From the NCBI RefSeq assembly GCF_030323145.1, contig NZ_CP100470.1:5497001-5561000 (forward strand): a stretch of 64,000 bases of DNA, given 5' to 3'. This DNA comes from Mesorhizobium sp. C432A (GTDB lineage Bacteria > Pseudomonadota > Alphaproteobacteria > Rhizobiales > Rhizobiaceae). Shown piece by piece: positions 37,332 to 59,097 of this stretch. Below the pieces are notes generated by a model. It had not been told where the DNA came from. It did not search any database and worked only from the letters and a program-made list of their open reading frames with translations. The translations under genes were made by a program, and so were the position numbers. Position 1 is the stretch's first letter. Each line of letters starts with the position of its first letter.

Positions 37332-37345
37332 AGCGCTTCCGTGGG

Positions 37346-40808: not shown

Positions 40809-40815
40809 GTTTTCG

Positions 40816-42959: not shown

Positions 42960-43894
42960 CAACGCGCTCGATCGTTTTCCCGATCTATCGAAATCAGGCG
43001 AACATCCCTTCCCTTCTGCAGGCGGTCGCCGATTTCCATTGCAGATATCAGGGCGACATCGAGTTCGTCTTCGTTGTCGACGGGTCGCCTGACGAATCCG
43101 GCCCTCTGCTGATCAAGGAAATGAAGAGCACGGGCTACGATTACAAGATCATCTTCCATAGCCGGAATTTTGGTTCTTTTACCGCCATCCGCACCGGCCT
43201 CGAACACGCATCGGGCAATCACGTTGCGGCCATGGCGGCCGACCTGCAGGAGCCGCCGGAACTGATCCTCGAATTCTTTTCGAAACTGGAGAAGGATGAG
43301 GCGGACGTGGTGTTTGGGCAGCGAGCTGGACGTAGCGATCCGCCTCTGACTAAATTTCTCTCGAGGGCTTTCTGGGCCGCCTACCGCAGGCTGGTCCTGC
43401 CCAGCATGCCGAGCGGCGGGGTGGATATCTTCGCTTGCAATCGCCCGGTGCTGGAAGCGATCCTGTCGATCGAAGAGCCGAACAGCTCGCTTGTCGTGCA
43501 GCTGTTCTGGGTGGGCTTCAGGCGGCAATTCGTGCCCTATCGCCGGCGCGAACGAGAGCACGGAACAAGCTCCTGGGGCATGGCACGGCGGTTCCGATAC
43601 ATGATGGACAGCGTCTTTTCGTTCTCTGACTTTCCGATCATGCTCACACTCTGGGTGGGCTTCGCGGGCTGCGTCTTGAGCCTGATATTTGCCACCGTTA
43701 CCGTGATTGCCCGCTTGCTTGGCAATATCGATCCCGCCGGTTACACGACGCTGGTGTTGCTGATCACGGGCTTCGGTTCGGCCAGTCTCCTGGTTCAGGG
43801 CATTCTTGGCTGCTATCTCTGGCGGGCAGTTGAAAACACCAAGTCACGCCCTCTCAGAATCATCAGCCGCGTCGTTGACGGAACAGCCAAATGA
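42956..43894 (+). CDS. Polyprenyl-phosphate glycosyltransferase, GtrB/DPM1 type
   Basis: GT2 enzyme of 312 residues with two C-terminal transmembrane segments. The catalytic domain starts RSIVFPIYRNQANIPSLLQA, has VVDGSPDESG for nucleotide binding and MAADLQEPPELI with the metal-binding DLQ motif; the membrane part is at about 225-295. Such proteins move a sugar from a nucleotide donor to undecaprenyl phosphate on the cytoplasmic face, for flipping by GtrA and transfer by a GtrC-like enzyme. The start is a GTG overlapping the preceding stop, with GGGAGG before it. Sitting between the aminotransferase and WxcM, it may load the 3-acetamido sugar. Confidence 0.88.
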   Translation: MTTRSIVFPIYRNQANIPSLLQAVADFHCRYQGDIEFVFVVDGSPDESGPLLIKEMKSTGYDYKIIFHSRNFGSFTAIRTGLEHASGNHVAAMAADLQEPPELILEFFSKLEKDEADVVFGQRAGRSDPPLTKFLSRAFWAAYRRLVLPSMPSGGVDIFACNRPVLEAILSIEEPNSSLVVQLFWVGFRRQFVPYRRREREHGTSSWGMARRFRYMMDSVFSFSDFPIMLTLWVGFAGCVLSLIFATVTVIARLLGNIDPAGYTTLVLLITGFGSASLLVQGILGCYLWRAVENTKSRPLRIISRVVDGTAK

Positions 43895-44841
43895 CCGACA
43901 AGCCATTTTTCGTGCATGAGCGCGGCATTTGCGAAAGTTCGTATGTCGGCGATGGAACACGGATCTGGGCGTTCGCCCACGTCCTTCCCGGCGCCGTGAT
44001 CGGCTCGAATTGCAACATTTGCGATCATGTTTTCATCGAGAACGACGTGATCATCGGCGATGAGGTGACCATAAAGTGCGGTGTTCAATTGTGGGACGGC
44101 CTTCGCCTGGGCAATCGCATATTCGTCGGCCCGAATGCGACTTTCACCAATGATCGATTCCCTCGTTCGAAGGAATATCCCGAAACGTTTCTGCTGACGA
44201 CCGTCGAGGATGGCGCATCAATCGGCGCCAACGCGACGATTCTCCCAGGCATAACCATCGGTCGTCAGGCGATGGTCGGCGCCGGCGCCGTGGTGACCAA
44301 GAACGTCCCTGCCAATGCCGTTGTCGTCGGGAATCCCGCCACGATCATCGGCTACCAGACCGGCCCGCGAGTGGAGCCGATCGTGACCCAAACCTTTCCC
44401 GGCACAGCTGGCGAGAAAATGCCGCTTGGCATTGGCGGGTGCGAACTCTGGCGGCTACCGCATTTTGGCGACCTGCGCGGCGAGCTCGCTCCACTAGAGT
44501 TCGGTTTGAATCTGCCCTTCAAGCCGGTCCGCTCATTCCTGGTCTACGGCGTGCCGTCAGACAAGGTCAGAGGCGAGCATGCGCATCGCGAGTGCCATCA
44601 GTTCCTTATTGCAACCCATGGTCGCCTTTCGGTCGTCGTGGATGACGGACGTGACAGGAAAGAGGTGTCATTGACCGAACCTTCGATCGGCCTCTATTTG
44701 CCGCCAGGAATTTGGGGGATTCAGTACAAATTTCAGCCAGAAACGGCCCTGCTGGTGATGGCCTCGCACCAATATGATGCAGACGATTACATCCGGGACT
44801 ATTCAGATTTCCTCAATGCGGTCGGGCAGGATGGCCGCTGA
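43891..44841 (+). CDS. wxcM: WxcM: sugar 3,4-ketoisomerase fused to acetyltransferase
   Basis: Bifunctional enzyme of 316 residues. Residues 1-155 are a left-handed beta-helix acetyltransferase (WAFAHVLPGAVIGSNCNICD, ASIGANATILPGITIGRQAM, VVVGNPATIIG). Residues about 180-310 are an FdtA-like cupin with the active-site pair His230/His232 in RGEHAHRECHQFL. In the Fuc3NAc/Qui3NAc pathway the cupin turns dTDP-4-keto-6-deoxyglucose into the 3-keto isomer, the aminotransferase adds the amine, and the acetyltransferase finishes the sugar. The same fusion is known as WxcM in Xanthomonas. It overlaps the GtrB-like gene by ATGA and the GtrA gene by 11 bases, so all are one unit. Confidence 0.92.
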   Translation: MTDKPFFVHERGICESSYVGDGTRIWAFAHVLPGAVIGSNCNICDHVFIENDVIIGDEVTIKCGVQLWDGLRLGNRIFVGPNATFTNDRFPRSKEYPETFLLTTVEDGASIGANATILPGITIGRQAMVGAGAVVTKNVPANAVVVGNPATIIGYQTGPRVEPIVTQTFPGTAGEKMPLGIGGCELWRLPHFGDLRGELAPLEFGLNLPFKPVRSFLVYGVPSDKVRGEHAHRECHQFLIATHGRLSVVVDDGRDRKEVSLTEPSIGLYLPPGIWGIQYKFQPETALLVMASHQYDADDYIRDYSDFLNAVGQDGR

Positions 44842-45211
44842 TCGTGTGGGCGCAGACGCTATCCGCTTTCTTGTCGCCGGCGGCCTAAACACCGCGCTGA
44901 CCACGCTCATATATTTCGCCGGCCTAACAGTGTTCCCTTCAAGTTTCTCCTACGGGCTTGCCTGGCTGGCAGGCCTCGTTTTTGCGATGGTATTCTATCC
45001 AGATCGTGTCTTTCCCGGAGGCCGTACGGGCTTCGCTGACAGACTGGCAATCGGCGCCTCGATCGCAATCGTGTTCGTAGTCGGATTGGTTAGTCTTCAG
45101 GTCCTCGAAAGAATCTTGCAAAACACGGCGGTAGCATTCTTCGTAACCCTCGCCACGACGACCATCCTCAACTTCTTGATTTCTCGATGGATACTCCGCA
45201 GATCATGCTGA
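44831..45211 (+). CDS. GtrA-family membrane protein (putative flippase)
   Basis: A 126-residue protein with four hydrophobic segments, PF04138 (GtrA-like). It opens IRFLVAGGLNTALTTLIYFA, the typical first membrane helix, and ends NFLISRWILRRSC. GtrA proteins are thought to flip the undecaprenyl-phosphate-linked sugar made by GtrB. The ATG at 44831 lies inside the 3' end of wxcM; the longer frame from 44774 would add residues read from wxcM's second frame. The gene overlaps the following one as well. Confidence 0.88.
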   Translation: MAADRVGADAIRFLVAGGLNTALTTLIYFAGLTVFPSSFSYGLAWLAGLVFAMVFYPDRVFPGGRTGFADRLAIGASIAIVFVVGLVSLQVLERILQNTAVAFFVTLATTTILNFLISRWILRRSC

Positions 45212-46716
45212 CGCGCCCAAACACAATCCGGCAGGCAATCAATCTCTTCGCGATTTTTGTCGCGATGTATTTCTCTGAGCTGGCTTCCTTTTCGCTCTCC
45301 GTCGACGAAGAACTCGCCGCGTTCAGAACTGATGCGTCAATCTGGATCATTCAGGGGCGATGGGGCGCGTATCTGATCGAGAGATTTCTCATCCCCCACC
45401 CAGTGATGCCGCTGCTGACACCGGCCGTCTTTGGTGCCGGTTGCGTAGCCGCCTATCTCCTCGTCATGGACGCCATCGACAAGCGCGAGCTTTCCATCGC
45501 GGAGTATGCATGTTTTGCAATCTTCTGCGGTTTCCCGACCTGGTTCTTCATCGTCGAGTTTTATTCGAACATCGCCGCTGTCGGGATTGGTCTGTTCGCC
45601 ACCGCGCTCGCGCTTTGGCTGATCGTCAGGAGTGACGTTTCTGTACTCAGCCCATCCTTCCTGGGTGCAGTAGCCGCAGGCGGCTTCGCGATCTCGATCT
45701 ATCAGAGTTTCGCGCCGGCAATTCTGGTATTGGGCATCGCGATCTCAATTCTACAGACAAGGGCTGGCACGGGAAAATCGCTGCCTAAAGTCCTGTTTCG
45801 GATCGGTGTTCTGCTGACCGGCGCCATATTGTTCTACGTCACCGGCAACGCCGTTTTTAGATTGTTCGTCTCCGGCAGTAACGCCTATTTCGATTCGCTT
45901 TCCCAGCCGGGTTTTCTGTTTGAACATCCGATTGTGGTCATTGGACGCGTATTGGAGGCGATGAGCGGGGCTTACGCTCTGGACCGGGGCACCTATGGCG
46001 TTGCGTTGTGGGCAATTCCTCTCTTGCTGATCCTGGGCGGCTGGGTACTTTTCGAGGAATCGCCCCGCACAAGACTGATGTTGACGGCACCCGCCTTCGT
46101 TTCGTTGCTTGTTCCCTTCGGTCTTCATTTGCTCGCGGCGGGCAGCATGCCTGTCAGAAGTCTCGTTGGGGTTCCGATCGCGGTGTGGCTGTTTTCTTAT
46201 GTGGCGGTTACGAGCGGGAATTACAGGATTCGTGTCGCCTCGGCTATTTTGCTGGCGGTGGCGCTCTTCCAGATCCAGGTCATCCAGAACTATCGTCTGG
46301 CGTCCAGCTATCTGGTCGACAAGCACGATACTCTTCTGGCGGGAGCCCTCTACGAGAGGTTGTCGGCCACGCCCGGTTTCGACGCAAAACGCAGCTACGC
46401 CTTAAGCGTGTTCGGTGCCCAGCCATTTGTGACAACCTATCCCAGGCCGCCAGGCTCGACAGTCGGTTATTCCTTCTTCGAATGGGACGGTGGCAATCCT
46501 TGGCGTATCGCTTCCTATATGGAACTTCTGGGCTATTCTAATTTGACAGGCCCGACCCTGGATCAAGTCGACCAAACAATCGTCCGTCTTTCAACCATGC
46601 CGGTGTGGCCCGCTCCCGGCAGTGTAGAAATCAAGGACGACATCGCACTGATAAGGCTCGGCCAGACGCCTAGCTACGCACATCAGCAAGCCCTCACAAG
46701 GATGGCCAAGCGTTGA
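45187..46716 (+). CDS. GtrII-like membrane glycosyltransferase
   Basis: Polytopic membrane protein of up to 509 residues with about 10-12 hydrophobic segments, resembling the glucosyltransferase GtrII family (PF14264). The first periplasmic loop contains SVDEELAAFRTDASIWIIQG and WGAYLIERFLIPHP, which hold the conserved acidic residues of the group (a DEE/D motif), and FYSNIAAVGIG follows. It would transfer the sugar carried by undecaprenyl phosphate to the growing or finished O-antigen in the periplasm, completing a gtrB-gtrA-gtrC type cassette. The start may be ATG at 45187 or ATG at 45205; the latter overlaps the GtrA stop by 7 bases. Sugar transferred is inferred to be the acetamido sugar made by the adjacent enzymes, not shown. 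Confidence 0.82.
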   Translation: MDTPQIMLTRPNTIRQAINLFAIFVAMYFSELASFSLSVDEELAAFRTDASIWIIQGRWGAYLIERFLIPHPVMPLLTPAVFGAGCVAAYLLVMDAIDKRELSIAEYACFAIFCGFPTWFFIVEFYSNIAAVGIGLFATALALWLIVRSDVSVLSPSFLGAVAAGGFAISIYQSFAPAILVLGIAISILQTRAGTGKSLPKVLFRIGVLLTGAILFYVTGNAVFRLFVSGSNAYFDSLSQPGFLFEHPIVVIGRVLEAMSGAYALDRGTYGVALWAIPLLLILGGWVLFEESPRTRLMLTAPAFVSLLVPFGLHLLAAGSMPVRSLVGVPIAVWLFSYVAVTSGNYRIRVASAILLAVALFQIQVIQNYRLASSYLVDKHDTLLAGALYERLSATPGFDAKRSYALSVFGAQPFVTTYPRPPGSTVGYSFFEWDGGNPWRIASYMELLGYSNLTGPTLDQVDQTIVRLSTMPVWPAPGSVEIKDDIALIRLGQTPSYAHQQALTRMAKR

Positions 46717-46965
46717 AGGGCGCCGCAATTGGTCCTGCTCGCGAAAGTCCTGTAGTGTGGTTTGGCACTTATCGCTGCGGACTTGACATGCGCCCGACTA
46801 GTCCAGGTTTGACCCGTACGTCGCCAGCTCTTGAAACGGTGGATCGGGGACCCTTCGATTCAGTTTTCAGCGGTGATTCCTTTGGTCGTTGATTGGCTGA
46901 CTGCAATTCGACGCGTGCTACACGGTCACGCAAACGGAGAGACCTCACGAACAGCGCGAGGCCGC

Positions 46966-47823
46966 ATGTTTTCCACTGCCGTCCCACACTTGAATGCGGC
47001 GGAAAGCTCGGCGGCCAACGGATGCACGGTTGAAGAGGCACTCGTTTTTCTACGCCGAATGAGCCTGGACGACTTCGGCCTCTTTATGATTTCCTTGCCG
47101 AACAAGCACTATCCTGGTTTGTCGCGTCTCCTGCCAGCAATGGCCAGCGACGACGTGCAGAAGACTTGGACCGGAGCATCTGGTCTCGACCTGTATCGGC
47201 AGACAGCATCTTTTGCCCGTCAACTTGAAAACAACTACACTCGGCATGTGAAAAAGCCGCTGGCAGGGTCTGACATCCTCGATTTCGGATGTGGCTACGG
47301 GCGTATCTTGCGCATGATGTACTACTATAGCGACCCGTCGCACATATGGGGTGTTGACGCGTGGGATAAATCTCTGGACCTATGTCGAGAGGCGAGGATG
47401 CATGGCAAGTTCGCTCAATCGGAGCGGATGCCTTCTGGTCTACCCGTCAATGATCAACGATTCGATTTGATTTTCGCCTTCTCGGTCTTCACTCATCTCG
47501 CGCCGGCAACCGCCAAAACCTGCCTTGCGGCGCTTCGAAACCACATCAAGCCCGGCGGACTGCTCGTCGCCACCATTCGGCCCATCGAATTCTGGCCGTT
47601 CATCGATGGGATTCGAAAGACCTCCATCGCTGCGGAGATGGAGTCGAATCACCGCCTTAACGGATTTGCCTATCTTCCTCATGGTGGTGTCGAAGGCGAA
47701 ACGTATGGTGACATCTCTTGCGAAATCGATTTTTTGAGGGGGAATGGCTGGACACTTGTAGGACATGACCGATCCATACTCGATCCATTCCAAGTGTCGG
47801 TGCTGATGCAGCCTTCCGGTTAG
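46966..47823 (+). CDS. Class I SAM-dependent methyltransferase
   Basis: A 285-residue protein with a SAM-binding fold at about 98-215: ILDFGCGYGRILRMMYYY (motif I at 106-113), FDLIFAFSVFTHLAPATAKT (motif II/post-I) and LRNHIKPGGLLVATIRPIEF. The N-terminal 90 residues are helical and of unknown role. The ATG at 46966 with GAGG four bases upstream is chosen; a TTG at 46831 would add 45 low-complexity residues. It is 250 bases after the GtrII-like gene and is probably transcribed with it. Likely an O- or N-methyltransferase of surface glycans; the substrate is not visible. Confidence 0.8.
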   Translation: MFSTAVPHLNAAESSAANGCTVEEALVFLRRMSLDDFGLFMISLPNKHYPGLSRLLPAMASDDVQKTWTGASGLDLYRQTASFARQLENNYTRHVKKPLAGSDILDFGCGYGRILRMMYYYSDPSHIWGVDAWDKSLDLCREARMHGKFAQSERMPSGLPVNDQRFDLIFAFSVFTHLAPATAKTCLAALRNHIKPGGLLVATIRPIEFWPFIDGIRKTSIAAEMESNHRLNGFAYLPHGGVEGETYGDISCEIDFLRGNGWTLVGHDRSILDPFQVSVLMQPSG

Positions 47824-48032
47824 CGGCGGGCTAAGGTGACGATAAATCGCGGTTTATCAACCACCTGCACGAGAGAGAGATAGTGGATTAATTGTCTGCC
47901 GGACCGAGATTCTCCGGTAATCGCTTCTACTATGATTTGATCGGCTGCCATTCGCCGTGTGGGGACGATTTCGGCAATGGCGAGCGGTACTCGGTTCCGG
48001 TGCCGGCGCTAATGGCTCCTTATGAGGTGCTA

Positions 48033-48680
48033 ATGAATTTTGATTTTCTCTTTATCGTGACCTATGGGCGATCAGGCTCAACTCTGCTTCAGGGGATAGT
48101 GAACACCATCCCGGGTGTGCTTATCAGAGGTGAAAATGCGGGCGCTCTTCACGGTCTTATCAAGTCCTGGGAGGCGGTGAAGATTGCGCAGGACCTGTTC
48201 TCAGCCGATAGCGAAAAGCCCACCAGTCCATGGTTTGGCGCCGCCGGCATGGATCTTGATCGATTCGGGCACGATCTTGCCGCCAGTTTCATTCGGAATA
48301 TCTTGAAGCCGCCGCCAGATATTCGCGTCACAGGCTTCAAGGAAATTCGCTATCACTTGACTGCTGGTGAACTGGCGTTCGAGCTGGAATTCATGCGGCG
48401 CTTCTTTCCTCGCTGTGCCTTTCTTATCAACACGCGGGGTCTGGAGGCCACTATCGCCAGCAACAAAAAGGCAGGTCATGATGTTTCAAAGGAGGATTTG
48501 ACTAAAGCCGATCAGTTGCTTCGCGACATAGCAGAATCGTCGACGCGAGACATTTTTCACGTCCATTATGATGACTACCGCTATGACCCTGATCGCCTTA
48601 GGCCACTATTTGACTTCCTTGGCGTTAACTTTGACCGCGTCACCCTGCAGAACGTTTTTGACACAAAGCACTCGAGCTAG
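48033..48680 (+). CDS. Sulfotransferase-family protein
   Basis: A 215-residue protein whose first residues, MNFDFLFIVTYGRSGSTLLQ, contain the 5'-phosphosulfate-binding loop GRSGSTLL of PAPS-dependent sulfotransferases. Further family-like parts are TGFKEIRYHL and FPRCAFLINTRGLEATIASN (3'-phosphate-binding region with Arg and Ser), then HVHYDDYRYDPDRLRPLFDF. The ATG at 48033 has GAGGT five bases before it; a longer frame from 47892 exists but has no good ribosome-binding site. With cysD-cysNC in the same window it could sulfate a surface sugar. The C-terminus is shorter than in many relatives (250-300 residues), yet no frameshift is apparent. Confidence 0.82.
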   Translation: MNFDFLFIVTYGRSGSTLLQGIVNTIPGVLIRGENAGALHGLIKSWEAVKIAQDLFSADSEKPTSPWFGAAGMDLDRFGHDLAASFIRNILKPPPDIRVTGFKEIRYHLTAGELAFELEFMRRFFPRCAFLINTRGLEATIASNKKAGHDVSKEDLTKADQLLRDIAESSTRDIFHVHYDDYRYDPDRLRPLFDFLGVNFDRVTLQNVFDTKHSS

Positions 48681-48943
48681 GGGACGCCTTCTCAACGGCC
48701 TCGGCGGTCAAGGCCTCGACTGCACCGCACCCGCTGCGTTACCCCATTGATCTAGACTAGTCGATACGTGGGTAAACCGACCGCGTTTGGCCATATCAGT
48801 TCCAAACTTGGTCCACTATGGCTCCGGCGCGAAATTCGATGCATGGATTTGCCTTTCCGACCGACGCACGTGAAGGAAATGCGGCTGTAGGTTTGTGACG
48901 GCTACAGAGTTCGGCTAAGTTTGAGGCTGAGCGGAGGACATCA

Positions 48944-49678
48944 ATGGCGATAGAGTTTCAGGCGACTTGCCCGATCTGCACCGAGCGGAAGACGTTCACA
49001 TCCCCAGACGACTATTACAGCTGCCGAGACTCCCTTGTCGCCGTCAATTGCCCGCTGAACGATTGCGTGACGCGCGAGCGGGCCGCAGCTGATGTCGTAT
49101 TCTCGCTCTTCCCAAGAGAAGCTTTCAAGACGCTCCGCGTGCACGAATCGGCGCCGGGAGGGCGCGGCCTTTCGCTATGGCTTTGGTACAATTCAAAGCA
49201 AAAGGTGTTTTCAGGCTATTATCCGAGCAAACCTTTCGGTTCGATGGTTGAGCACATCAGGAATGAGGACCTGGAGGCTCAAACCTTTCCTGACCGAACT
49301 TTCGACCTAGTCATCCATCTTGATGTAATGGAGCACCTATTCCACCCATTTGCCGCCCTCAGGGAGATTTTCCGAACTCTGGATTTCGGTGGCGTGTGCA
49401 TTTTCACAACACCGACATACCCGGAATGGGCGGCCTCAGAACAAGTAGCCTTCCGATCGAAGGATGGCATCCGGATTGTGGGCGAACCCGAATACCATGG
49501 CAACCCGCAAGATCCGAGCGGATCATTGGTCACTTGGCGGTATGGCTACGATTTTCCCCTGCTGATCCAGCGACACACCGGATTCGACGTTGAAGTGCGG
49601 AGAATGCAGTCCAATAGCATTGCGGTCCTTGGCCCTATGACGGAGGTATACATACTGAGAAAGCCACGCACGTTCTAA
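48944..49678 (+). CDS. Methyltransferase with N-terminal Cys-rich motif
   Basis: A 244-residue protein. The first 45 residues have a zinc-ribbon-like set of cysteines (Cys9, Cys12 in CPICTERK, then Cys27, Cys36 and Cys41). The rest is a class I methyltransferase: EDLEAQTFPDRTFDLVIHLD followed by VMEHLFHPFAALREIFR and GGVCIFTTPTYPEW. The Gly-rich motif I is degenerate (HESAPGGRGLSLWL), so SAM binding should be tested. GGAGG precedes the ATG at 48944. It is convergent with the giant polysaccharide gene. The layout recalls small sugar C- or O-methyltransferases with an N-terminal zinc site, but the substrate is unknown. Confidence 0.8.
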   Translation: MAIEFQATCPICTERKTFTSPDDYYSCRDSLVAVNCPLNDCVTRERAAADVVFSLFPREAFKTLRVHESAPGGRGLSLWLWYNSKQKVFSGYYPSKPFGSMVEHIRNEDLEAQTFPDRTFDLVIHLDVMEHLFHPFAALREIFRTLDFGGVCIFTTPTYPEWAASEQVAFRSKDGIRIVGEPEYHGNPQDPSGSLVTWRYGYDFPLLIQRHTGFDVEVRRMQSNSIAVLGPMTEVYILRKPRTF

Positions 49679-49764: not shown

Positions 49765-52700
49765 CTAGTCCGGCCGCTCCACGAGCGTAACGCAATCCAG
49801 TTCGTCCACGCCGCCCCAGTGAATGATATTGCTTTCGCGAACGACAAGCCCCGCACTTTTGGCGTAGGTCTCGAACAGTTTCCTGGTCATGTGGTTTCGC
49901 GCCAGTGGATTCCGACCGTAGTGCCGGTTCATTGGCGCTGGATAGTTAGAGTGGTGAAAAAGCCCCATTCCGCCGGGCCGCAGTATTCGTGCTGCATCCC
50001 TGAGATAGCTCTCAACGATATCCGGGCTGAAATGCACCATGGAGTCATAACAATAGATAGCGGTCACACTTCCTTGTTCCACCGGCTCAAAGGTGGCCCC
50101 GTCCCCCTTGAGATATCGGACAAACGGATACGCCCGCAGCCTGTCTCGGCAGAAATCCAGGTTGGCCTCGTGAATGTCCATCAGCGTCAGGCGATCCGTC
50201 ATCTGAGCAACTCGTTCGGCGTGCCGACCATGTCCGCACGACAATTCGAGAACTGACGTCAGGTCCAGTTTGTTGAAGAGACGACGAAAGTTCTTGTCCT
50301 CGTCCCAAAACAGATGGGTCCAGGGCTCGGCATCGTCATAGTATGGGCTTTCGACCCAAGCGGCGCCGACGATCGCCACTGACTCGCCGAGCTTTCTCTT
50401 CGATTCAGAATTGATCATATCGGCGCTGTTTGTTTCTTCGGCCTTGGCCCGAGTTTCCCCAGAAACCTGATGCCACTCGAACCGTGGCTTGTCGCCTGTC
50501 GCGAGGCCAAATTGCTCGTAGAGTCGTTGGGCATATGCGCTTGCTGATTCTTGCGCTGCCGCTCCCAGATGGAAGCGGGCAATCGTTTCGGATTGCACGC
50601 GCGCGATCTCTTGCAGATGGCTGGCGTTGAAACTCCCGATGGTCACGCTTGATTGATGCCGGCGATGCGCGTTGAGCGCGTGCGGATGGAACGCGATATC
50701 GCCCTTCTCCAGCAATCGCAGATACGCGACCCAGTCGCCGGCATTCCTGTAGGAAGCGATTTCATCAAGGTGCTGGCTGAGAGCCTCGCGCAGCGCCTCC
50801 CTTCGAAACAGAACGCCGCTGACGTTTGGAATGGTGTTCTTGAGGTAAAGTGCCTCGGCGATCTCCTGGCGGCCATCCACGACATAGGGTTTCGTCCAGC
50901 GAGACCGGTCAATATCGGCCACATAGTCGAGATAGTGTTCGGACAAGACGCGGCCGGCGCCGTCTATCTGGCGCGACTGGCAGTAGCTCATTACGACTTC
51001 GTCGCGCTCGAAGGCTGGCATAAGCTCGGCCAGAAAGCCGGGATCGGCGAGGTCGTCGGCTTCGGCGATCCAAACGTAATCGCCCCGCGCCATTTCGACC
51101 CCACGCATCCATTGACGGAAGACCGAGCCCGAATTCTGCGCATTCACGACCAACCTGCACGAAATGTCGCAATCGGCCAGAAATTGCTGGATGACCTCGA
51201 CGCTTTCGTCCGTCGAAGCATCGTCAAGCACGATCAACTCATAGGGCCGCATCGTCTGATCGGTGATCGAGCTCAGGCGCGCACCCAGATATCGGGCGTA
51301 ATTGTAGTTCGGCACGATGACCGACACCCGCGGCGATGGCCTTTCTGCGTAAATCAGCAAGTCGTGCAGGTAGTGGCTGAAGCTGAATTCCTGGCGGACA
51401 ATATCACGGCCCACGCCTGCCAGATTTCGAGCATTGTCCGGATCATCGAGTAGACCGTTGATGGCCTTGGCCATGGCGTCAGTGTCGAATGCAGGCACAA
51501 GACTTCCGCAATCACGCTTCAGCAAGTCCTGGAAGCCGCCTGCGCCTTCGAAGGCAACGACCGGGACCGTGGCATCAAGCGCCTCAAGTACCACCGACGG
51601 GAACGGATCTTCACGCGAAGTCAGGGCGTAAATATCCGCCGCGAAATAATATTCCTGCGGGTTCTCTACCAAGCCCACAAAGACGAAGCGATCCTCGAGC
51701 CCTGCTTCCCTCACGCGTTGCATCTGTTTGGCGTGAAAGGCGCGATCGACGTGGCCGACCCAGACCGCAACCACATCCGGATTGGACCTCATCAGAGTGA
51801 GGCAAACGTCAACGAAAAGATCGAGGCCCTTCCGATGATCGGCGTAGCCCGCGCACAAGATGATGCTGGTGTTTGTCGATAGTTGCAATTTGGCGCGGAC
51901 CGCCTCGCGGACCCGTTGACGGTCCCCTGCGTGGTACGGCATGCGCAAATAGAGGCCTTGCGGTCTGACGACTGACTGGCTGACCGGCCGGCCAACAAAT
52001 TCTTCAAATCCGGCTTTCACGATCTCTGCTGGGAAAACGACTGTATCGGCGCCCTCGGCAATCGCCTCGGCGGCATCAGCAAGGCCGTAGGACTTTAATA
52101 TCCCGGGCAGCTCGTGGACGAGGCACACCGTGCGGAACCCCGCCTGTTTCAGCAGCGGGACGAGCATGCCGGATACGGTGGTGTTCACGACCGCCACTTC
52201 CGCGCCTGCGTTCCTGATGGCGGTCAGGCGACACAACACATCGGCGGCATCTCCCTCTGGCACATTGATCCTATGCACTGTCGCTGTGTCGGCGAAACGG
52301 CCGAGCAGCGGCCCATCACCCAGCACGACGAGATCCGGCGCGAAACCAAGCTGTGTGAACCCCTTGGCCAAATTGAGCGCCAGCAATTGTGCGCCATGCG
52401 GATGGGCGTCGTGGGAAACGATTGCGATCCGGGGTTTGCATTTCCCGCTCGCCGCCTCCAGAGCGTCGCGGGTCGCTTGCAGGTAGGCGTAGCCGTTTAC
52501 GGTATCGGGCTCCAGATGAGCGCCTTCCGCCCATTCGTTCCAGGCGTTGACGAAGACCAGCCGCTCGGATGGCTCCTTGACATGGGCCAGCGTGTCCTCG
52601 ATGGCGTTGCCCAGCCACCCTCGGTAGAGCGCGGGGGTGTTGTTGATGAACACGGTGCCGCCGCGCTTGCGGCGCGCCGTGTTGTCCCAGCCGGGACAAA

Positions 52701-55002
52701 CCGAGCGGAAGAGCTTGTATTTGCGGGGTGGATAGTTCTCGCTGCGCTGCGGAAAAACAGACCAGTCATAGACAGTGGTGGCAAAATCGTCGTGCAGCGG
52801 CGCAACGGTGTGCGTGACATTTGGCGGCGCCGAATTGTTTGGCGGAAATTCCACAGCGGCATCGAACCCGTAACGGTCAGGAGACACGGCTTCGAAGGAC
52901 TGGGTGTAAGCGAGGAAAATCTCGCCTATGCCGTTCTCCCGGCACCATGTCCGCCAGCGTTGCGCCGTCTCGGCTGCCGCCGGAAGCAGGCTTGGGCGAT
53001 AGACAAGCAGAAGCGGCTTGCCGTCGATCCGGATGTAACGAGGGTCGCGAAGATAAGGCGCGACCTCGGCGATGAAAGCGAGATCATCCTGGGGAGAGTG
53101 ATCCTGGGCGATCAGGATCTCTTGGTCCAGCCCGTCCCAGCGGCGCGACCAGTTTTCGTTGGCCCAGCAAAGGCAGAACGGCATGTCGAGGCTCTTGTCC
53201 CCGAGCCAGTTTTCGAGCGGCTTTTCCAACAGCCTCTTGCCGCCGAACCAATAAAAATAGAAGCAGAAGCCTTCCACGCCATAGAGCTTTGCCAGGTTGA
53301 TCTGGCGGTACTGCACGGCGGTGTCGCGCAGATCATAGTAGCCGAGGGCATCCGGTTCATGCGGCTGGTGGTGGCCGAAAAATTGCGGTTGGGCGGGCCT
53401 GACATTGGTCCATTCGGTGAAGCCTTGCCCCCACCATTCATCGTTTTCGGGCGTCGGGTGGAACTGCGGCAGGTAGAACGCAATGACGCGCACCGGCTTT
53501 TGGTGCAGCGGCGGAGCTTCGAGACGCGGCACGTAGACGGGTTCGGGTGCAACGGCCGGGCCAGAACTGGCCGGCCGGTACAAGGCCGTCCCGACGTAGC
53601 CCATCGGTGCGTCGGGCGCCTCCAGGCTTCGCCAGGCGCGATAGGCATTCGTAACGCCAAACAGCGAAGGAAAGGTCGAAAACACCGCGCTTTTCAACTT
53701 CCGTTTAACGTCGACAGACAGCGGCAGTTTGTGCCAGCAAATGTACGCGCCGCGAGCCAAGACGCGGCGAGCGGTCATAGGTGCCTTGCCGATCGCGCGG
53801 ACGCGGCTCGCAATTCCGCGCAATGGCCTGGTCAGTCGCCATGAGGTGCTGGCGTAGACTGCATCGAGAACACCGTGCAACCGGACTTCCTCGAAGCGAG
53901 CATTGTCGCGATCGGCAAGGAGCGTGCTGGCGGCCGCATGCGCCGTCGACAGTTCCGCTTGCAAGGCGTTGATCTCTTCTAACCTTTCAGCGAGCTGGGC
54001 TCTTGCGCCTGCGATCTCGTCGGAGCGGCTCTCGATCTCTCTGCGCGCCTTGGCGACCTCCTCGAGGAGCGCCTGCATTTGCGCTTCGCGATGGTCGCCC
54101 AGTTCCCGTTTGCTCGTGATCTCCTCTTCCATCGTCATCGACCGCAACGACCAGGGATTTCCAGCCTGGCTGGCAGCGTTCAGCGCCGTGCCATCAAGAC
54201 GAAGGATGCTCTGTTCAACCGCCGCGACCTCTCCTGCTACGTAGCGGCGCCCGAGGACGTTCTCCTGGGACGGCCGTTTGGTTACGATACAAAGAGAGTT
54301 CAGGAACTCTACGGAATGAATCGACGCAAGCGAAGGATCATCGAATACGACCCCGTACCGATTCGCGAATGCCGCGAGTGCATCCGTTCGACTATGGTCC
54401 AGTCCCCAGTGCTCGTGATTGATCAAATCAAGCAATCGCTTGAAGAACGACATCGAGGAAAGCGGATCATAGAGGCCACCTTCGAAGTCCTGCCAGTAGC
54501 TGGTATGCAGATCTTCGACAACGAATATCCCACCATCTGAAAGATGAGGAAAATAGCCTGTGAATGTCCGTATGACGTCGGAAGATCTGTGCGAACCGTC
54601 GTCTATGATGATGTCGAAAGCCTCGGATCGATCGACAATACTGCGCTTAACGTCTTCGGCGTTAGCATCACCTATGACAACGTCGATTTTCCCGTCGTCG
54701 AAACGCAGGAGTCCGCAGTTCTGGTTGATATCACAGCCCAGAATAATTTCCGCTTTTGTAAAATACTTTCCCCATATCTCAAGCGAGCCGCCGTTCTGGA
54801 TTCCAATTTCGAGGATCCGAACCGGTTTGTTTCGATATCTCGAAAAAAATCGATCATACTCACTCAAGTAAATCGACCACTTGTCAGACACCTTGCCGTC
54901 ATGTTTGTCGTAGAGTCGGCGAAGTGACCGGCCGCGGATATTCGTCGGCTCCGTATCCGCTTTCGGATCGCTGCCTTTCCGCGAAGTTGCTGGCTCATTC
55001 AT
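49765..55002 (-). CDS. Giant polysaccharide assembly protein: MT - coiled coil - WbsX/GH99-like - GT4 - GT2 - MT
   Basis: A 1745-residue protein with at least six parts. About 30-245: methyltransferase of the CmcI/macrocin type (VRILEIGIQNGGSLEIWGKY, DIIIDDGSH at 130-138, VEDLHTSYW at 162-170). About 290-375: coiled coil, followed by STSWRLTRPLRG. About 503-850: WbsX/Glyco_hydro_99-like domain (IAFYLPQFHPTPENDEWWGQ, WTNVRPAQPQF, FVNAWNEWAEGAHLEPD). About 856-1220: GT4 (AGYADHRKGLDLFVDV; ALTSREDPFPSVVLEALD). About 1224-1460: GT2 (SVIVPNYNYARYLGARLSSI, DDAST at 1260-1264, WIAEADDLADPGF). About 1540-1742: second methyltransferase (VLELSCGHGRHAERVA). No signal peptide or membrane helix is seen. 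The ATG at 55002 overlaps the rmlD stop by 4 bases, placing it in the rml operon. Likely builds and caps a rhamnose-containing glycan; that role is inferred. Confidence 0.88.
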   Translation of the reverse strand: MNEPATSRKGSDPKADTEPTNIRGRSLRRLYDKHDGKVSDKWSIYLSEYDRFFSRYRNKPVRILEIGIQNGGSLEIWGKYFTKAEIILGCDINQNCGLLRFDDGKIDVVIGDANAEDVKRSIVDRSEAFDIIIDDGSHRSSDVIRTFTGYFPHLSDGGIFVVEDLHTSYWQDFEGGLYDPLSSMSFFKRLLDLINHEHWGLDHSRTDALAAFANRYGVVFDDPSLASIHSVEFLNSLCIVTKRPSQENVLGRRYVAGEVAAVEQSILRLDGTALNAASQAGNPWSLRSMTMEEEITSKRELGDHREAQMQALLEEVAKARREIESRSDEIAGARAQLAERLEEINALQAELSTAHAAASTLLADRDNARFEEVRLHGVLDAVYASTSWRLTRPLRGIASRVRAIGKAPMTARRVLARGAYICWHKLPLSVDVKRKLKSAVFSTFPSLFGVTNAYRAWRSLEAPDAPMGYVGTALYRPASSGPAVAPEPVYVPRLEAPPLHQKPVRVIAFYLPQFHPTPENDEWWGQGFTEWTNVRPAQPQFFGHHQPHEPDALGYYDLRDTAVQYRQINLAKLYGVEGFCFYFYWFGGKRLLEKPLENWLGDKSLDMPFCLCWANENWSRRWDGLDQEILIAQDHSPQDDLAFIAEVAPYLRDPRYIRIDGKPLLLVYRPSLLPAAAETAQRWRTWCRENGIGEIFLAYTQSFEAVSPDRYGFDAAVEFPPNNSAPPNVTHTVAPLHDDFATTVYDWSVFPQRSENYPPRKYKLFRSVCPGWDNTARRKRGGTVFINNTPALYRGWLGNAIEDTLAHVKEPSERLVFVNAWNEWAEGAHLEPDTVNGYAYLQATRDALEAASGKCKPRIAIVSHDAHPHGAQLLALNLAKGFTQLGFAPDLVVLGDGPLLGRFADTATVHRINVPEGDAADVLCRLTAIRNAGAEVAVVNTTVSGMLVPLLKQAGFRTVCLVHELPGILKSYGLADAAEAIAEGADTVVFPAEIVKAGFEEFVGRPVSQSVVRPQGLYLRMPYHAGDRQRVREAVRAKLQLSTNTSIILCAGYADHRKGLDLFVDVCLTLMRSNPDVVAVWVGHVDRAFHAKQMQRVREAGLEDRFVFVGLVENPQEYYFAADIYALTSREDPFPSVVLEALDATVPVVAFEGAGGFQDLLKRDCGSLVPAFDTDAMAKAINGLLDDPDNARNLAGVGRDIVRQEFSFSHYLHDLLIYAERPSPRVSVIVPNYNYARYLGARLSSITDQTMRPYELIVLDDASTDESVEVIQQFLADCDISCRLVVNAQNSGSVFRQWMRGVEMARGDYVWIAEADDLADPGFLAELMPAFERDEVVMSYCQSRQIDGAGRVLSEHYLDYVADIDRSRWTKPYVVDGRQEIAEALYLKNTIPNVSGVLFRREALREALSQHLDEIASYRNAGDWVAYLRLLEKGDIAFHPHALNAHRRHQSSVTIGSFNASHLQEIARVQSETIARFHLGAAAQESASAYAQRLYEQFGLATGDKPRFEWHQVSGETRAKAEETNSADMINSESKRKLGESVAIVGAAWVESPYYDDAEPWTHLFWDEDKNFRRLFNKLDLTSVLELSCGHGRHAERVAQMTDRLTLMDIHEANLDFCRDRLRAYPFVRYLKGDGATFEPVEQGSVTAIYCYDSMVHFSPDIVESYLRDAARILRPGGMGLFHHSNYPAPMNRHYGRNPLARNHMTRKLFETYAKSAGLVVRESNIIHWGGVDELDCVTLVERPD

Positions 55003-55976
55003 CGTTGGAGGCTGTCCTTGATTGGCGCCAAATCGCTTCGAGGCGGTCCGGCAACAGGTCCATGGCGATGCCCCTCGATCGCGCTCGTTGTCTCCCCCGC
55101 CAAAAGGCGGCCGACCAAGGCATTTGTGGATAATTGCCACTCCGGCGCCGTCCATCCGAACGTGGCTGCGAATTTCGCGCTCGAAAGCCGCGAATTGGCG
55201 GGGCGCCCCGCCTTGGTAGGATAGTCGCTGGTCGCGATGTCGCGCACCTGCGCACGCGGGCCACCCAACGCCCGGCTTGTGTCCAGGATGTGGCGGGCAA
55301 AGCCACTCCAGTTAGTCTCGCCGGTTCCCGCCAGATGGTAGATGCCGAAGGACGCAAAGCCTGTGTGGCCACGCAGGATCGCTGCTGCACGGAGGATAGC
55401 GTCGGCGATATCGAGCGCGGAAGTCGGGTTTCCCCACTGGTCGCCCACCACCGCGATCTCGTCACGGTCGCTAGCCAGCCTGAGCATGGTCTTGACGAAA
55501 TTCTTGCCGAACGGGCTGTAAACCCAACCGGTGCGCAGTATCACGTGGCGCGGGCTGGCTGCAGCCACCGCCTGTTCGCCCGCAAGCTTGGACGCGCCGT
55601 AGACGCCGAGCGGCGCGGTCGCGTCCGCCTCATCATAAGCACCGGTCTTGGTGCCGTCGAAGACATAGTCGGTCGAAAGATGAATGACCGGGACACCAAG
55701 CCGCGCTGCCGCTTCGGCCACCTTGCCGGCGCCCGCGGCGTTCACCGCAAAAGCCAGTTCGGGCTCGTCCTCGGCCTGGTCCACCACGGTGTAAGCGGCG
55801 GCCGAGACTATGACATCGGGCCTCGCCGCCGCAAGCGCCTCGAACACCGTGTCGGGCCGCGCCAGATCGAGCTGCGGCCGTCCCACGGCGACCACCTCCA
55901 CGCCCGCCAGCCCTTGCCCCGCCTCCAGCAAACTGGTGGCGACCTGGCCCTCGCGTCCGGTGACGACAAGCCTCAC
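54999..55976 (-). CDS. rmlD: dTDP-4-dehydrorhamnose reductase
   Basis: Last step of dTDP-L-rhamnose synthesis, NAD(P)H-dependent, 325 residues. The protein starts at a GTG ([20 protein letters not shown]) that overlaps the rmlB stop by GTGA. Family motifs are [28 protein letters not shown] and the catalytic Tyr/Lys in [10 protein letters not shown]. The C-terminal part (about 295-325) is longer than in most RmlD proteins and ends next to the start of the giant gene. A frame from 56054 would overlap rmlB and is rejected. Confidence 0.95.
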
Positions 55977-57049
55977 GCCGCGCCCTTCCTGTCTTGGACC
56001 TGGCCCAGCCGCTCGCCGGCATAGCGCTGTTCGCGGATCGGGCCCCACCACCATTTGTTGTCGAGGAACCAGTCGACCGTCCTTGCCAGGCCGCTGTCGA
56101 AACTCTCGGCAGGCGTCCAGCCGAGGTCACGGCTGATTTTGGATGCGTCGATCGCGTAGCGGCGGTCGTGGCCGGGGCGGTCGGTGACGAAATTGATCAG
56201 ATCACGATGGCTTTTGCCGCCTTTTCGAGGCCGCCTGATGTCAAGCAGGTCGCAGATCGTCTCGACGACGCTCAAATTCGTCCGCTCCGAATTGCCGCCG
56301 ACATTGTAGCTTTCGCCCGGCATTCCCTTGGTCGCGACAAGCTCCAGCGCGCGCGCATGGTCCTCGACGAACAGCCAGTCGCGCACATTGGCGCCGGCGC
56401 CGTAGACCGGCAGCGGCTTTTCGTCGAGCGCGTTGAGGATGACCAGCGGGATCAGCTTTTCGGGGAAGTGATAGGGCCCGTAATTGTTCGAGCAATTGGA
56501 GAGCACGACTGGCAGGCCGTAGGTCTCGTGCCAGGCCCGCACCAGATGGTCCGACGCCGCCTTGGAGGCAGAATAGGGCGAGGACGGCGCGTAAGGCGTT
56601 TCCTCGACGAACATGCCGCCGTCGAAAGGCAGATCGCCGAACACCTCGTCGGTCGACACATGGTGGAAGCGGAAGCGGGCTTTCCTGTCGTCGCCAAGGC
56701 CACGCCAATATTCGAGCGCCGAATTCAGCACCCGGTAGGCGCCGACGATGTTGGTCTCGATGAAGGCGCCCGGTCCGTCGATCGAGCGGTCGACATGGCT
56801 TTCGGCGGCGAGGTTCATGACGACGTCGATCTCGTCGCGGTGGAGGATGTCGAGAACCGCCCGCTCGTCACAGATGTCGGCCTGCGCAAATTTGTAGTTG
56901 TGCGCATTCTCGATGGTGCGCAGCGAGGCCAGATTGCCGGCATAGGTGAGCTTGTCGAGATTGGTCACATGGTAGGCCGGATTGGCGCACAAATGCCGGC
57001 ACACGGCCGAGCCGATGAAGCCGGCACCGCCTGTCACCAGAAAATTCAT
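55973..57049 (-). CDS. rmlB: dTDP-glucose 4,6-dehydratase
   Basis: Converts dTDP-glucose to dTDP-4-keto-6-deoxyglucose, the branch point for rhamnose (RmlC, RmlD) and for the 3-amino sugars (WxcM and the FdtB-like enzyme). The 358 residues begin [49 protein letters not shown] and the catalytic [15 protein letters not shown] are clear. GGAGAG lies before the ATG at 57049. A frame from 57202 would overlap rmlC. The order rmlA-rmlC-rmlB-rmlD is one operon with the giant gene. Confidence 0.97.
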
Positions 57050-57074
57050 GGCGCTCTCCTCACATCGTCGCGCG

Positions 57075-57626
57075 TCATGCGAACACCTCGGCCTCAGCAA
57101 GCGCCGACGCCTTGAGGTCCTTGGCCGAGAGCTCGAAGGCGCCGGCCGGCGACGGCCAATCGATGCCGATATCAGGATCGTCGAAACGGATCGATCGATC
57201 ATGCGCCGGCGAATAGGTGTCGGTGACCTTATACAGAACCTCGGTGTCCGGCACGAGCGTGACGAAACCGTGCGCGAAACCCTTCGGCACCAGGATCTGG
57301 TTGCCTCTCTCGGCCGATATTTCGAGCGCGACCCATTTTCCGAAGGTTTTCGAGCTGCGGCGGATGTCGACCGCCACGTCGAGAATCTTGCCTCGGATCA
57401 CACGCAGCAACTTGTCCTGCGCGCGTGGAGGCAGTTGATAGTGAAGCCCCCGCACGACACCTGCCGCCGCCGAATAGGAGTGATTGTCCTGGACGAAACG
57501 CAGGTCGATGCCGGCTTCAAAAAAGCGCTCGGCATTCCAGGTCTCGATGAAATAGCCGCGCGCATCGCCGTGCCGCTTCGGCACGATCTCGAGCACGCCA
57601 TCAAGACCAAGCTGCCTGAAGTCCAC
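57075..57626 (-). CDS. rmlC: dTDP-4-dehydrorhamnose 3,5-epimerase
   Basis: Cupin epimerase of 183 residues acting on dTDP-4-keto-6-deoxyglucose. Hallmarks are [35 protein letters not shown] (active-site His), and [20 protein letters not shown]. The start at [10 protein letters not shown] is 1 base after the rmlA stop, implying coupling. Its presence with RmlD shows that L-rhamnose, and not only the amino sugar, is made. Confidence 0.97.
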
Positions 57627-57627
57627 T

Positions 57628-58509
57628 CTAGTTCTCCGTCAGCTCGGTGACACGCCGGCGCAGATAGGCGGCGTATTCGTTCTTGCCCAGGCGCGTGGCG
57701 CGCTCAAGCACCTTGTCGGCGGTCAGCCAGCCCTGCTCGAAAGCGATTTCTTCAGGACAGGCAACCTTGATGCCCTGGCGGTGCTCGATGGTGCGCACGA
57801 AGGACGAGGCCTCATGCAGGCTGTCATGCGTGCCGGTGTCGAGCCAGGCATAGCCGCGGCCAAGCTGATGCACGTGCAATTTCCCGCGCTCGAGATAGAC
57901 GTTGTTGACCGCCGTGATCTCGAGCTCGCCGCGCGCCGAGGGCTTGATCGTCGAAGCGATGTCGACGACATCGTTGTCGTAGAAATAGAGCCCGGTGACC
58001 GCCCAGTTGGACTTCGGCTTCTCCGGCTTTTCCTCGATCGTCAAAGCGGTGCCGGTGAGCTTGTCGAACGACACCACGCCATAGCGCTGCGGATCCTCGA
58101 CATGGTAGGCGAACACCGACGCGCCGCTTTCGCGCTGCGCGGCAGCGCGGCAGAGCTGCAACAGGCCCTCGCCGAAATAGATGTTGTCGCCGAGGATCAT
58201 CGACACATTGTCCTTGCCGATGAAGTCGCGGCCGATGATGAAGGCCTCGGCAAGCCCGTTGGGCCGCGGCTGTTCGGCATATGAGAGCTCAAGGCCGAAC
58301 TCCGAGCCGTCGCCAAGCAATTCCCGGAAAGTGGGTAAGTCACGTGGAGTTGAGATGATCAAAATCTGTCTGATACCCGCGAGCATCAGCACACTCAGCG
58401 GATAATAGATCATAGGCTTGTCGTATATCGGCAGGATTTGCTTAGAGACCGCTAATGTTAGCGGATAGAGACGGGTGCCGCTGCCTCCTGCAAGGATAAT
58501 TCCTTTCAA
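57628..58509 (-). CDS. rmlA: Glucose-1-phosphate thymidylyltransferase
   Basis: Makes dTDP-glucose from dTTP and glucose-1-phosphate, entry step of the dTDP-sugar pathways. The 293 residues start [20 protein letters not shown] after a TTG start at 58509; AAGGAG lies 6 bases before. An ATG at 58617 would add 36 atypical residues. Motifs [20 protein letters not shown] and [10 protein letters not shown] are typical. It is the first gene of the operon; the promoter should lie within 58510-58700. Confidence 0.95.
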
Positions 58510-59097
58510 CAAGCTCTCCTTGAAAACCGAGGCCCCCGCCCTGACAACAAGTTGCCCGTGCTTAGGTTTCAAGCAATGGCTTGTCAATCTTCCGGCTCGG
58601 GCAGCGTCTAGGATCATCCCCGTTCGTCCGAATCGGTCAATCGCGAAACAGATTTGCTACGCCCTCATCAAAAGATAGCGGGCTAGGTGCCTTCCGTTCA
58701 ATCACATTCCGGTCGCAGTACGTGACCCTCGAAAACCCGGAACCAGAACTCGTAGTCATCTTGTTGGCGACTGTCACAGCGCGCGGTAGAGAAGGTCGCG
58801 GCGAGCACAGCACTGTTCTGCTCAAGTGTTGTCGAACTGACGAGGGCGCTTGCCTTGCCATGAATGGTCGAAGGGATTGGTCTGTCTCGTTTCTGCTGAC
58901 GATGTTCGTGCGTGAATGTCCGACGTGGGGTTTAAAGATGACCGGACCTCTAAACAGCGCGAGTTGCGAGTGAAGCGCGCCGCGCGTGCTGGCGGACGCG
59001 CTTGCACGAAACAGTGCATAGGAGTTGTCTCTCGATTGCTGTTGCCCACAAAGGATGCGAAAAACTTCTGAAAAGACGGAAGCTCTCGGGAGGAGTT
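58510..59097. other. Intergenic region between rmlA and the acyltransferase
   Basis: About 590 bases between divergent genes. It should hold the rmlA operon promoter near its left end and the acyltransferase promoter at its right end. The middle carries the minus-strand remnant described separately. No clear promoter boxes or hairpin were recognised. Confidence 0.4.
58698..58865 (-). pseudogene. 3' remnant related to the one at 34.5 kb
   Basis: A minus-strand frame without a usable start, open for at least 55 codons, reads STTLEQNSAVLAATFSTARC then DSRQQDDYEFWFRVFEGHVL and stops at 58698. Its end resembles the fragment at 34545-34630 (YRFWLRVFEGHF), with 15 identical bases over GTGACCCTCGAAAAC. 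No known domain was recognised. It looks like the 3' end of a lost gene; together the two copies bracket most of the polysaccharide island. Confidence 0.4.

What the first reader, a model, noticed from the sequence alone, without database searches (positions are those of the whole stretch)
49765..55002. 1745-residue polysaccharide assembly protein with two methyltransferases, coiled coil, WbsX/GH99-like domain and two glycosyltransferases
Seen: six domain-like parts in one frame, ATGA-coupled to rmlD. Known: in E. coli O9a the WbdD methyltransferase/coiled coil acts as a chain-length ruler and cap for an ABC-exported O-antigen. Inference: this protein joins polymerising glycosyltransferases with methyl capping and a coiled coil, so it could be a single-chain version of polymerase plus terminator, acting on a rhamnan.
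Basis: partly seen in the sequence, partly recalled or inferred. Interest (0 to 1): 0.7.

Follow-up and report, generated by a model that had tools for sequence, protein, structure and literature searches.

The report
Modular sugar-chain builder, ruler and cap
A soil bacterium (Mesorhizobium) carries one giant protein that probably builds a surface sugar chain, measures it with a long rod and caps its end with a methyl group, and its relatives appear to exchange the cap (methyl, sulfate or sugar) and the chain-building part like plug-in modules.

Summary
Confirmed: one intact 1745-aa frame (MT, coiled coil, WbsX, GT4, GT2, MT), ATGA-overlapping rmlD, in a Mesorhizobium O-antigen locus. The N-terminal MT is a MycE/SpnK-type sugar O-methyltransferase with conserved motif residues; AlphaFold2 shows an unbroken 94-residue helix behind it. 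Single-chain polymerase-plus-terminator proteins are already known (WsaE, K. pneumoniae O7 ORF6, WbbB): this is a new variant. Whether the product is a rhamnan is undetermined.

Beyond the finding: (1) among 10 Mesorhizobium orthologues, 26 of 35 unequal pairs differ in rod length by 14 or 28 residues, as a ruler might; (2) the cap module varies: of 54 sampled full-chassis relatives, 28 carry a sulfotransferase (some by an in-house profile only), 16 an MT, 6 a GT, 4 unassigned; (3) cap+rod and GT4-GT2 recombine around a near-constant WbsX, and two cap types x two polymerase types occur in all four combinations in one genus; (4) against the WbdD model, the locus Wzt lacks the cap-reading domain and the genome has no such domain, so cap-gated export is not supported here. 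I know of no biochemistry on this protein.

The parts
49765..55002 (-). whole gene, 1745 aa, cap-ruler-WbsX-GT4-GT2-MT protein; ATGA overlap with rmlD
54277..54924 (-). N-terminal MycE/SpnK-type sugar O-methyltransferase (residues 27-242), proposed cap enzyme
   Evidence: conserved D134 D135 H138 E163 D164
53851..54132 (-). coiled coil, one predicted helix, residues 291-384
53620..53844 (-). STSWRLTRPLR motif and basic segment (residues 387-461) between rod and WbsX, possible membrane or docking segment
   Evidence: W388 invariant in A2; role inferred
52471..53487 (-). WbsX / GH99-like domain (residues 506-844), NEWAEG motif with E823 and E826
51373..52431 (-). GT4 glycosyltransferase module (about residues 858-1210)
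50593..51336 (-). GT2 glycosyltransferase module (residues 1223-1470)
49768..50427 (-). C-terminal methyltransferase (residues 1526-1745), rare fusion
54999..58617 (-). rmlA-rmlC-rmlB-rmlD (dTDP-L-rhamnose), same strand, upstream
40017..41556 (+). wzm-wzt ABC exporter; Wzt short (ORF 266 aa, likely start 20 codons in), no Wzt_C domain
41823..46716 (+). DegT aminotransferase, GT2 (ArnC/PgfS-like), hexapeptide-FdtA fusion, GtrA-like (25.4 bits, just under the cut-off 26.1), GtrII: possible aminodeoxyhexose side branch
   Evidence: pathway inferred
46831..49678 (+). methyltransferase, stand-alone sulfotransferase (47892-48680), methyltransferase

Best explanation
The protein is a single-chain cap-ruler-polymerase for an ABC-exported O-polysaccharide of Mesorhizobium. 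GT4 and GT2 (C-terminal) lengthen a lipid-linked chain at the membrane. The helix (residues 291-384, about 14 nm if straight) holds the N-terminal methyltransferase away from the polymerase, so only chains that reach it are O-methylated (2-O or 3-O of a terminal 6-deoxyhexose) and stop growing. WbsX is a near-constant, probably catalytic GH99-like domain acting on a feature shared by different polymers. The C-terminal MT is an extra, perhaps methylating inside the chain. Shown by computation: domains, motif residues, helix, heptad-sized length steps, mosaic and cap exchange. Inferred: polymerase role, cap role, length control, regiochemistry, what WbsX does.
For: Domain order as in WsaE and O7 ORF6. 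N-MT is closest to the solved methyltransferases MycE and SpnK by sequence (1.6e-26 and 2.2e-20) and fold (E about 1e-13 to 1e-15). Residues aligned with MycE's DDGSH and ED motifs are at least 90% conserved in the 27 sequences of A2. Single helix 291-384. Rod length differs by 14 or 28 in 26 of 35 unequal pairs, the 9 exceptions all involving L138, whereas the 192 gap runs counted elsewhere are 1-10 long and none is a multiple of 7. On the chassis tree the six N-terminal classes need at least 24 changes, including MT/sulfotransferase changes within the genus, as expected of a terminator more than of a polymerase part. M. loti NZP2213 S-LPS has 2-O-methyl-6-deoxytalose 0.40 against QuiNAc 0.45 and 6-deoxytalose 15.0 (PMC6274867 Table 1, passages), i.e. 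about one 2-O-methyl sugar per core. B. gladioli wbsX mutants (stop at 419, frameshift at 1346) resist an LPS phage, and the wzt mutant lies in the same cluster (PMC13391952 passages).
Against: Wzt at the locus has no cap-reading domain and the genome has no PF14524 match, whereas PMC11231755 says that all its terminated O antigens have one. WsaE methylation was chain-length independent in vitro (PMC2943079). Heptad contrast is not significant in 6 of 14 rods tested, e.g. L135 p 0.13, L142 p 0.14, L154 p 0.58. Counted as single gap runs, only 21 of 51 gaps inside the rod are multiples of 7, since the aligner often splits them; L138 differs by 18, and 7 of 12 rods of MycE-type proteins without WbsX do not differ from the window by sevens. 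The pairs are not independent. The oligomer state was not modelled. I could not tell whether M. loti NZP2213 carries this gene; the passages I saw do not call its 2-O-methyl sugar terminal, and its oatB mutant has more of it (1.10).
Confidence: 0.67

Rival explanations
1. Decorator, not terminator: the N-MT and C-MT methylate residues inside the chain, the rod only spaces domains, and chain length is set by the polymerase:exporter ratio as in CBM-less K. pneumoniae O1/O2 systems.
For: In the 18 MycE-type Mesorhizobium loci with a Wzt-like ORF in view it has at most 304 aa (one, L152, is a 97-aa fragment), too short for the extra domain; 7 of the 18 were also scanned with Pfam and none has Wzt_C. 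O1/O2 exporters lack a CBM, and in O2a growth is coupled to export (PMC11231755 passages). A second MT is fused here and two more lie nearby.
Against: Heptad-sized length changes of the rod, other cap-like enzymes in the same place in relatives, position at the far end of the rod, and the low 2-O-methyl content in wild-type M. loti.
Confidence: 0.23
2. Fusion for convenience: proteins of one pathway are joined for co-regulation, and the N-terminal, WbsX and GT parts act independently without geometric coupling.
For: Split relatives exist: L065 has a separate sulfotransferase ORF upstream of WbsX-GT4-GT2, A. salmonicida has a 216-aa sulfotransferase-domain ORF before a 1122-aa WbbB (PMC4483657 passages), and five MT-rod proteins of 394-455 aa stand alone (L147-L150, L154). 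In 23 of 25 chassis proteins with a short N-terminus no such cap gene was found in the stretch held.
Against: The five stand-alone MT proteins keep the rod and the SWR motif, like WbdD beside WbdA; the rod is kept between cap and chassis although its sequence diverges.
Confidence: 0.08

Closest known systems
WsaE, Geobacillus stearothermophilus S-layer glycan (passages of PMC2943079)
   Same: N-terminal methyltransferase then two glycosyltransferase domains in one chain; 2-O-methyl cap on a rhamnose chain; wzm/wzt and rml genes in the cluster.
   Different: No WbsX-like domain or C-terminal MT is described in the passages I read; WsaE was not compared by sequence here.
K. pneumoniae O7 ORF6 (passages of PMC11231755)
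   Same: Methyltransferase end, coiled coil, two C-terminal GT modules in one chain; TDP-Rha donor.
   Different: Cap is methyl-phosphate made by MT plus kinase; both GT modules are GT2; terminated systems there have a CBM on Wzt; no WbsX mentioned in the passages read.
WbbB, K. pneumoniae O12 (passages of PMC11231755)
   Same: Polymerase and terminator in one polypeptide with a ruler.
   Different: Cap is a Kdo residue added by a GT.
WbdD, E. coli O9a / K. pneumoniae O3 (passages of PMC11231755)
   Same: Terminator, coiled coil, then polymerase side; stand-alone MT-rod proteins in Mesorhizobium resemble this split format.
   Different: WbdD is kinase plus MT, the polymerase is a separate protein, and export is gated by a Wzt CBM, absent here.
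MycE and SpnK (3ssm, 8ia9)
   Same: Fold and motif residues; both methylate 6-deoxysugars (substrates recalled).
   Different: Macrolide- or spinosyn-modifying enzymes, not tied to a rod or polymerase.
A. salmonicida WbbB (passages of PMC4483657)
   Same: 1122-aa protein with a 'polysaccharide biosynthesis', a GT1- and a GT2-family domain, the WbsX-GT4-GT2 layout by position, beside a sulfotransferase-domain ORF and a 438-aa Wzt.
   Different: No N-terminal cap or rod in the same chain; sequence not compared here.

Membership tests
Single-chain cap / coiled-coil / polymerase format (WsaE, O7 ORF6, WbbB) | cap enzyme N-terminal to a coiled coil, polymerising GTs C-terminal, one chain | tested here: met
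Single-chain cap / coiled-coil / polymerase format (WsaE, O7 ORF6, WbbB) | extended coiled coil with ruler-like length variation | tested here: met
   94-residue helix; 26 of 35 unequal pairs differ by a multiple of 7; heptad contrast p < 0.05 in 8 of 14 copies; oligomer state untested
Single-chain cap / coiled-coil / polymerase format (WsaE, O7 ORF6, WbbB) | cap ends growth and sets chain length | not testable with these tools
   needs mutants or in vitro assays
WbdD/WbbB-type pathway with cap-gated export | Wzm/Wzt genes at the locus | tested here: met
WbdD/WbbB-type pathway with cap-gated export | carbohydrate-binding domain (PF14524) on Wzt | tested here: not met
   0 of 16 short Wzt incl. 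window; 0 in own genome; positive control 26 of 27 long Wzt of relatives
WbdD/WbbB-type pathway with cap-gated export | amphipathic membrane segment after the coiled coil | tested here: inconclusive
   18-mer 387-404 muH 0.35, charge +5, protein 95th percentile 0.30; AF2 block means under 70 throughout 371-470
MycE/SpnK sugar O-methyltransferases | fold, and the motif residues recalled as metal ligands and base | tested here: met
   assignment of ligands and base recalled from the MycE structure (paper not held)
MycE/SpnK sugar O-methyltransferases | methylation of a 6-deoxysugar hydroxyl | not testable with these tools
   no assay
Pfam WbsX (PF14307) | profile above cut-off over full length | tested here: met
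   446 bits, cut-off 25.1, 1-350 of 350
GH99 glycosidases | glutamate pair in the NEWxEG motif (catalytic role recalled) | tested here: met
   E826 in 46 of 46, E823 in 45 of 46 (one Asp); colinear with GH99 chains but E only 0.017
GH99 glycosidases | GH99 fold and glycan-cleaving activity | not tested
   structure search of the chassis model was never accepted; no assay

The most novel reading that the evidence does not exclude
WbsX-GT4-GT2 is a widespread polymerase chassis onto which cap-and-ruler cassettes are plugged and swapped by recombination. The commonest cassette in the sample is a sulfotransferase, so many of these bacteria would end their O chains with a single sulfate, a terminator that I did not find described. 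In Mesorhizobium such capped chains would be exported without any cap-reading domain, so the cap would set length but not gate export, and WbsX would be a near-constant GH99-like chain-processing enzyme and not one of the sugar-specific transferases.
Probability: 0.35. Interest if true: 0.78.

Novelty: new variant of a known kind. Interest (0 to 1): 0.6.

Why it matters
O-antigen length and end group affect how bacteria meet hosts, phages and predators. If the reading holds, chain end and chain body evolve independently by module exchange, which would explain fast serotype change; sulfate joins methyl, methyl-phosphate and Kdo as a terminator; and the rule that a capped chain needs a cap-reading exporter has an exception that is testable in a non-pathogenic symbiont. 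M. loti makes sulfated LPS, and a nodPQ mutant made no sulfated polysaccharide and nodulated less well (PMC6192434, passages); sulfotransferase caps are candidate enzymes for such sulfation.

Tried and rejected
Rejected: (1) that the C-MT belongs to the same family as the N-terminal MTs of L038 and L074: the matches are only 37.8 and 24.6 bits; the one strong relative among the ORFs compared, apart from the G031 copy, is a separate 213-aa protein in L043 (238.9 bits). (2) That the CBM follows the cap type: in Mesorhizobium sulfotransferase caps occur with short Wzt (L039, L139, L140, all with GT4-GT2) and with long Wzt (L155, L156, L157, L158, L164=L107, without GT4-GT2 matches), so it rather follows the polymerase. 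(3) That the stand-alone sulfotransferase of the window belongs to the cap-type sulfotransferases: it is not among the 45 matches of that profile. (4) That 'WbsX' papers would give a function: 25 papers hold the word, and most of the 20 listed are about filarial antigens; one useful paper, PMC13391952.

The genome searches scored only the best 3 or 8 candidate places per genome, so they can miss second copies.

Full report
What is there. The frame at 49765-55002 (-) encodes 1745 residues and overlaps rmlD by ATGA. Pfam finds an N-terminal methyltransferase, WbsX, GT4, GT2 and a C-terminal methyltransferase. The window lies in a complete 6.02-Mb genome (G000); its nearest relatives are records named Mesorhizobium. 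Upstream on the same strand are rmlACBD. Converging from the left on the + strand are wzm, wzt, a DegT aminotransferase, an ArnC/PgfS-like GT2, a hexapeptide-FdtA fusion, a GtrA-like protein (just under its cut-off), GtrII, a methyltransferase, a sulfotransferase and another methyltransferase. Further left are an O-antigen-ligase-type protein (Wzy_C), an initiating-type sugar transferase (Bac_transf) and genes that look like PAPS synthesis. I read this as an O-antigen locus (inference).

The N-terminal enzyme. Solved relatives are MycE and SpnK. SpnK is named so in the titles of 8ia9 and 8iaa; that both methylate 6-deoxysugars is recalled. The MycE DDGSH and ED motifs, which I recall as metal ligands and base, align with D134-D135-G136-S137-H138 and E163-D164 here, all at least 90% conserved in the 27 sequences of alignment A2.

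The rod. AlphaFold2 (27-sequence alignment, mean pLDDT 68.9) gives the MT domain mostly at 85-96 and one unbroken helix 291-384; its ten-residue means are 76-86 over 301-370 and lower at the ends (60, 68, 48). Measured from NPW to STSW, the length is 106 in the window and 106, 120, 124, 134 or 155 in the other WbsX-bearing MycE-type proteins of Mesorhizobium that have both motifs. MycE-type proteins without WbsX range from 80 to 129, and 7 of these 12 do not differ from the window by sevens. In pairwise alignment of 10 orthologues (window, L032-L037, L136-L138), 35 of 45 pairs differ in rod length; 26 differ by 14 or 28, and the other 9 (18, 10 or 4) all involve L138. Elsewhere in the same alignments 192 gap runs of 1-10 residues were counted, none a multiple of 7; terminal gaps and the stretch after about residue 1440 were left out. 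Taken as single runs, only 21 of 51 gaps inside the rod are multiples of 7, because the aligner often splits a length change. The pairs are not independent. By residue shuffling the heptad signal has p < 0.05 in 8 of 14 rods, p 0.02 in the window copy.

The cap module varies. The search for related loci kept the best 80 of 585 confirmed loci. Together with Mesorhizobium stretches, and after dropping four second copies of the same genomes (L133, L134, L135, L141) and the broken L142, 54 distinct proteins have WbsX, GT4 and GT2 plus more than 300 residues before WbsX. N-terminal module: 27 sulfotransferase by an in-house profile plus one Sulfotransfer_2 (L045); 11 MycE-type including the window; five other methyltransferases (L055 and L060; L062; L074; L038 by a weak 37.8-bit match only); six glycosyltransferases, two of them behind a PIG-L deacetylase; four unassigned (L048, L081, L084, L096). 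Of the 54, 28 N-terminal segments were scanned with Pfam. Of the 14 profile-type sulfotransferases among these, 12 match a Pfam sulfotransferase family at E <= 0.001, 6 of them over its curated cut-off, and 2 (L042, L056) match no Pfam family. The 45 profile matches share HRSGTS and RNPLSVA motifs, which I recall as PAPS-binding. Another 25 chassis proteins have a short N-terminus. On a quick tree of 71 chassis rows the six classes (short and unassigned included) need at least 24 changes (shuffled mean 37.3, none of 200 as low), and the MycE label needs 4, at least 3 of them forced by well supported branches.

The gene is a mosaic. Against L136, the window is 79-91% identical over cap and rod and 88-94% over WbsX, but 40-57% over GT4-GT2. 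MT with polymerase type 1 (window), MT with type 2 (L136-L138), sulfotransferase with type 1 (L139, L140) and sulfotransferase with type 2 (L039) all occur in one genus. WbsX, 77-94% identical in all seven comparisons, is the near-constant centre.

WbsX. The profile of 46 sequences is colinear with GH99 chains, but only at E 0.017. The two glutamates of NEWAEG are kept (E823 45 of 46, E826 46 of 46). I recall this pair as catalytic in GH99. The chassis model is confident (mean pLDDT 91.3), but I could not search it against solved folds. Residues invariant in 50 chassis sequences include D1260, D1261, E1314, D1316 and D1317 in GT2 and R1057, K1058 and E1131 in GT4. B. gladioli mutants in a wbsX of at least 1346 codons resist an LPS phage (PMC13391952, passages), so a large WbsX protein matters for O antigen elsewhere; its architecture was not checked here.

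The exporter does not fit the prototype. Of 27 long Wzt of relatives 26 carry Wzt_C, of 16 short ones none; the 16 were chosen from 21 short ABC matches, five (L044, L059, L063, L084, L097) being dropped as low-scoring and likely other ABC proteins. Of the 18 MycE-type Mesorhizobium loci with a Wzt-like ORF in view none exceeds 304 aa; ten further such loci show none in the stretch held. The window genome has no PF14524 match. Among 146 Mesorhizobium genomes 47 have one, 44 over the cut-off. Of the 28 genomes with a MycE-type match (window included), four (G001, G018, G027, G029) have one over the cut-off, each at another place in the genome, and G104 has one below it, also elsewhere. PMC11231755 states that in all its terminated examples the CBM is present (passages). 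So the protein matches the single-chain format while its pathway fails one defining feature of cap-gated export.

Published chemistry. M. loti NZP2213 S-LPS: 6-deoxytalose 15.0, 2-O-methyl-6-deoxytalose 0.40, QuiNAc 0.45 (PMC6274867, Table 1 passage), about one 2-O-methyl sugar per core. The word 'terminal' was not found in that main text, and in the oatB mutant the value is higher (1.10), which a pure cap would explain only if other residues can be methylated too. A. salmonicida has a sulfotransferase-domain gene beside a WbbB of the chassis size, and the authors find no such residue in the O-antigen structure (PMC4483657, passages); a single terminal sulfate could escape repeat-unit analysis (inference).

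Verdict. Real, intact and well conserved; a new variant of the known single-chain terminator-ruler-polymerase. The more interesting results are the exchangeable caps, above all sulfotransferases, the near-constant WbsX centre, and a ruler system without a cap-reading exporter. That I found no print on sulfotransferase terminators rests (and on terminators in general), in this library only.

Noticed in passing
window 22157-25837 (-): Inositol-phosphatase-family protein (CysQ-like), GTPase plus APS-kinase fusion and a PF01507 protein (CysD- or CysH-like): probable PAPS synthesis genes beside the O-antigen region, with a stand-alone sulfotransferase at 47892-48680.
   Followed up: partly
window 34653-37376 (-): 907-aa protein: GT2, TPR, methyltransferase and a second MycE-type methyltransferase at its C-terminus (39% identical to residues 14-198 of the finding).
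   Followed up: no
L059, L063, L097 (Rhodobacter): Same chassis with a sulfotransferase and very long rods: 633, 493 and 473 residues between sulfotransferase and SWR motif; the two R. capsulatus records differ by 140, twenty heptads.
   Followed up: partly
L155-L158, L164: Mesorhizobium proteins with sulfotransferase and WbsX but no GT4-GT2 match, all five beside a 471-541-aa Wzt: perhaps a third polymerase type.
   Followed up: no
L142 (G031): The only other copy seen with the C-terminal MT; its gene is broken into several frames, either sequencing error or decay.
   Followed up: no
L046, L068: N-terminal PIG-L deacetylase plus GT2 in front of the chassis: possible two-step cap.
   Followed up: no
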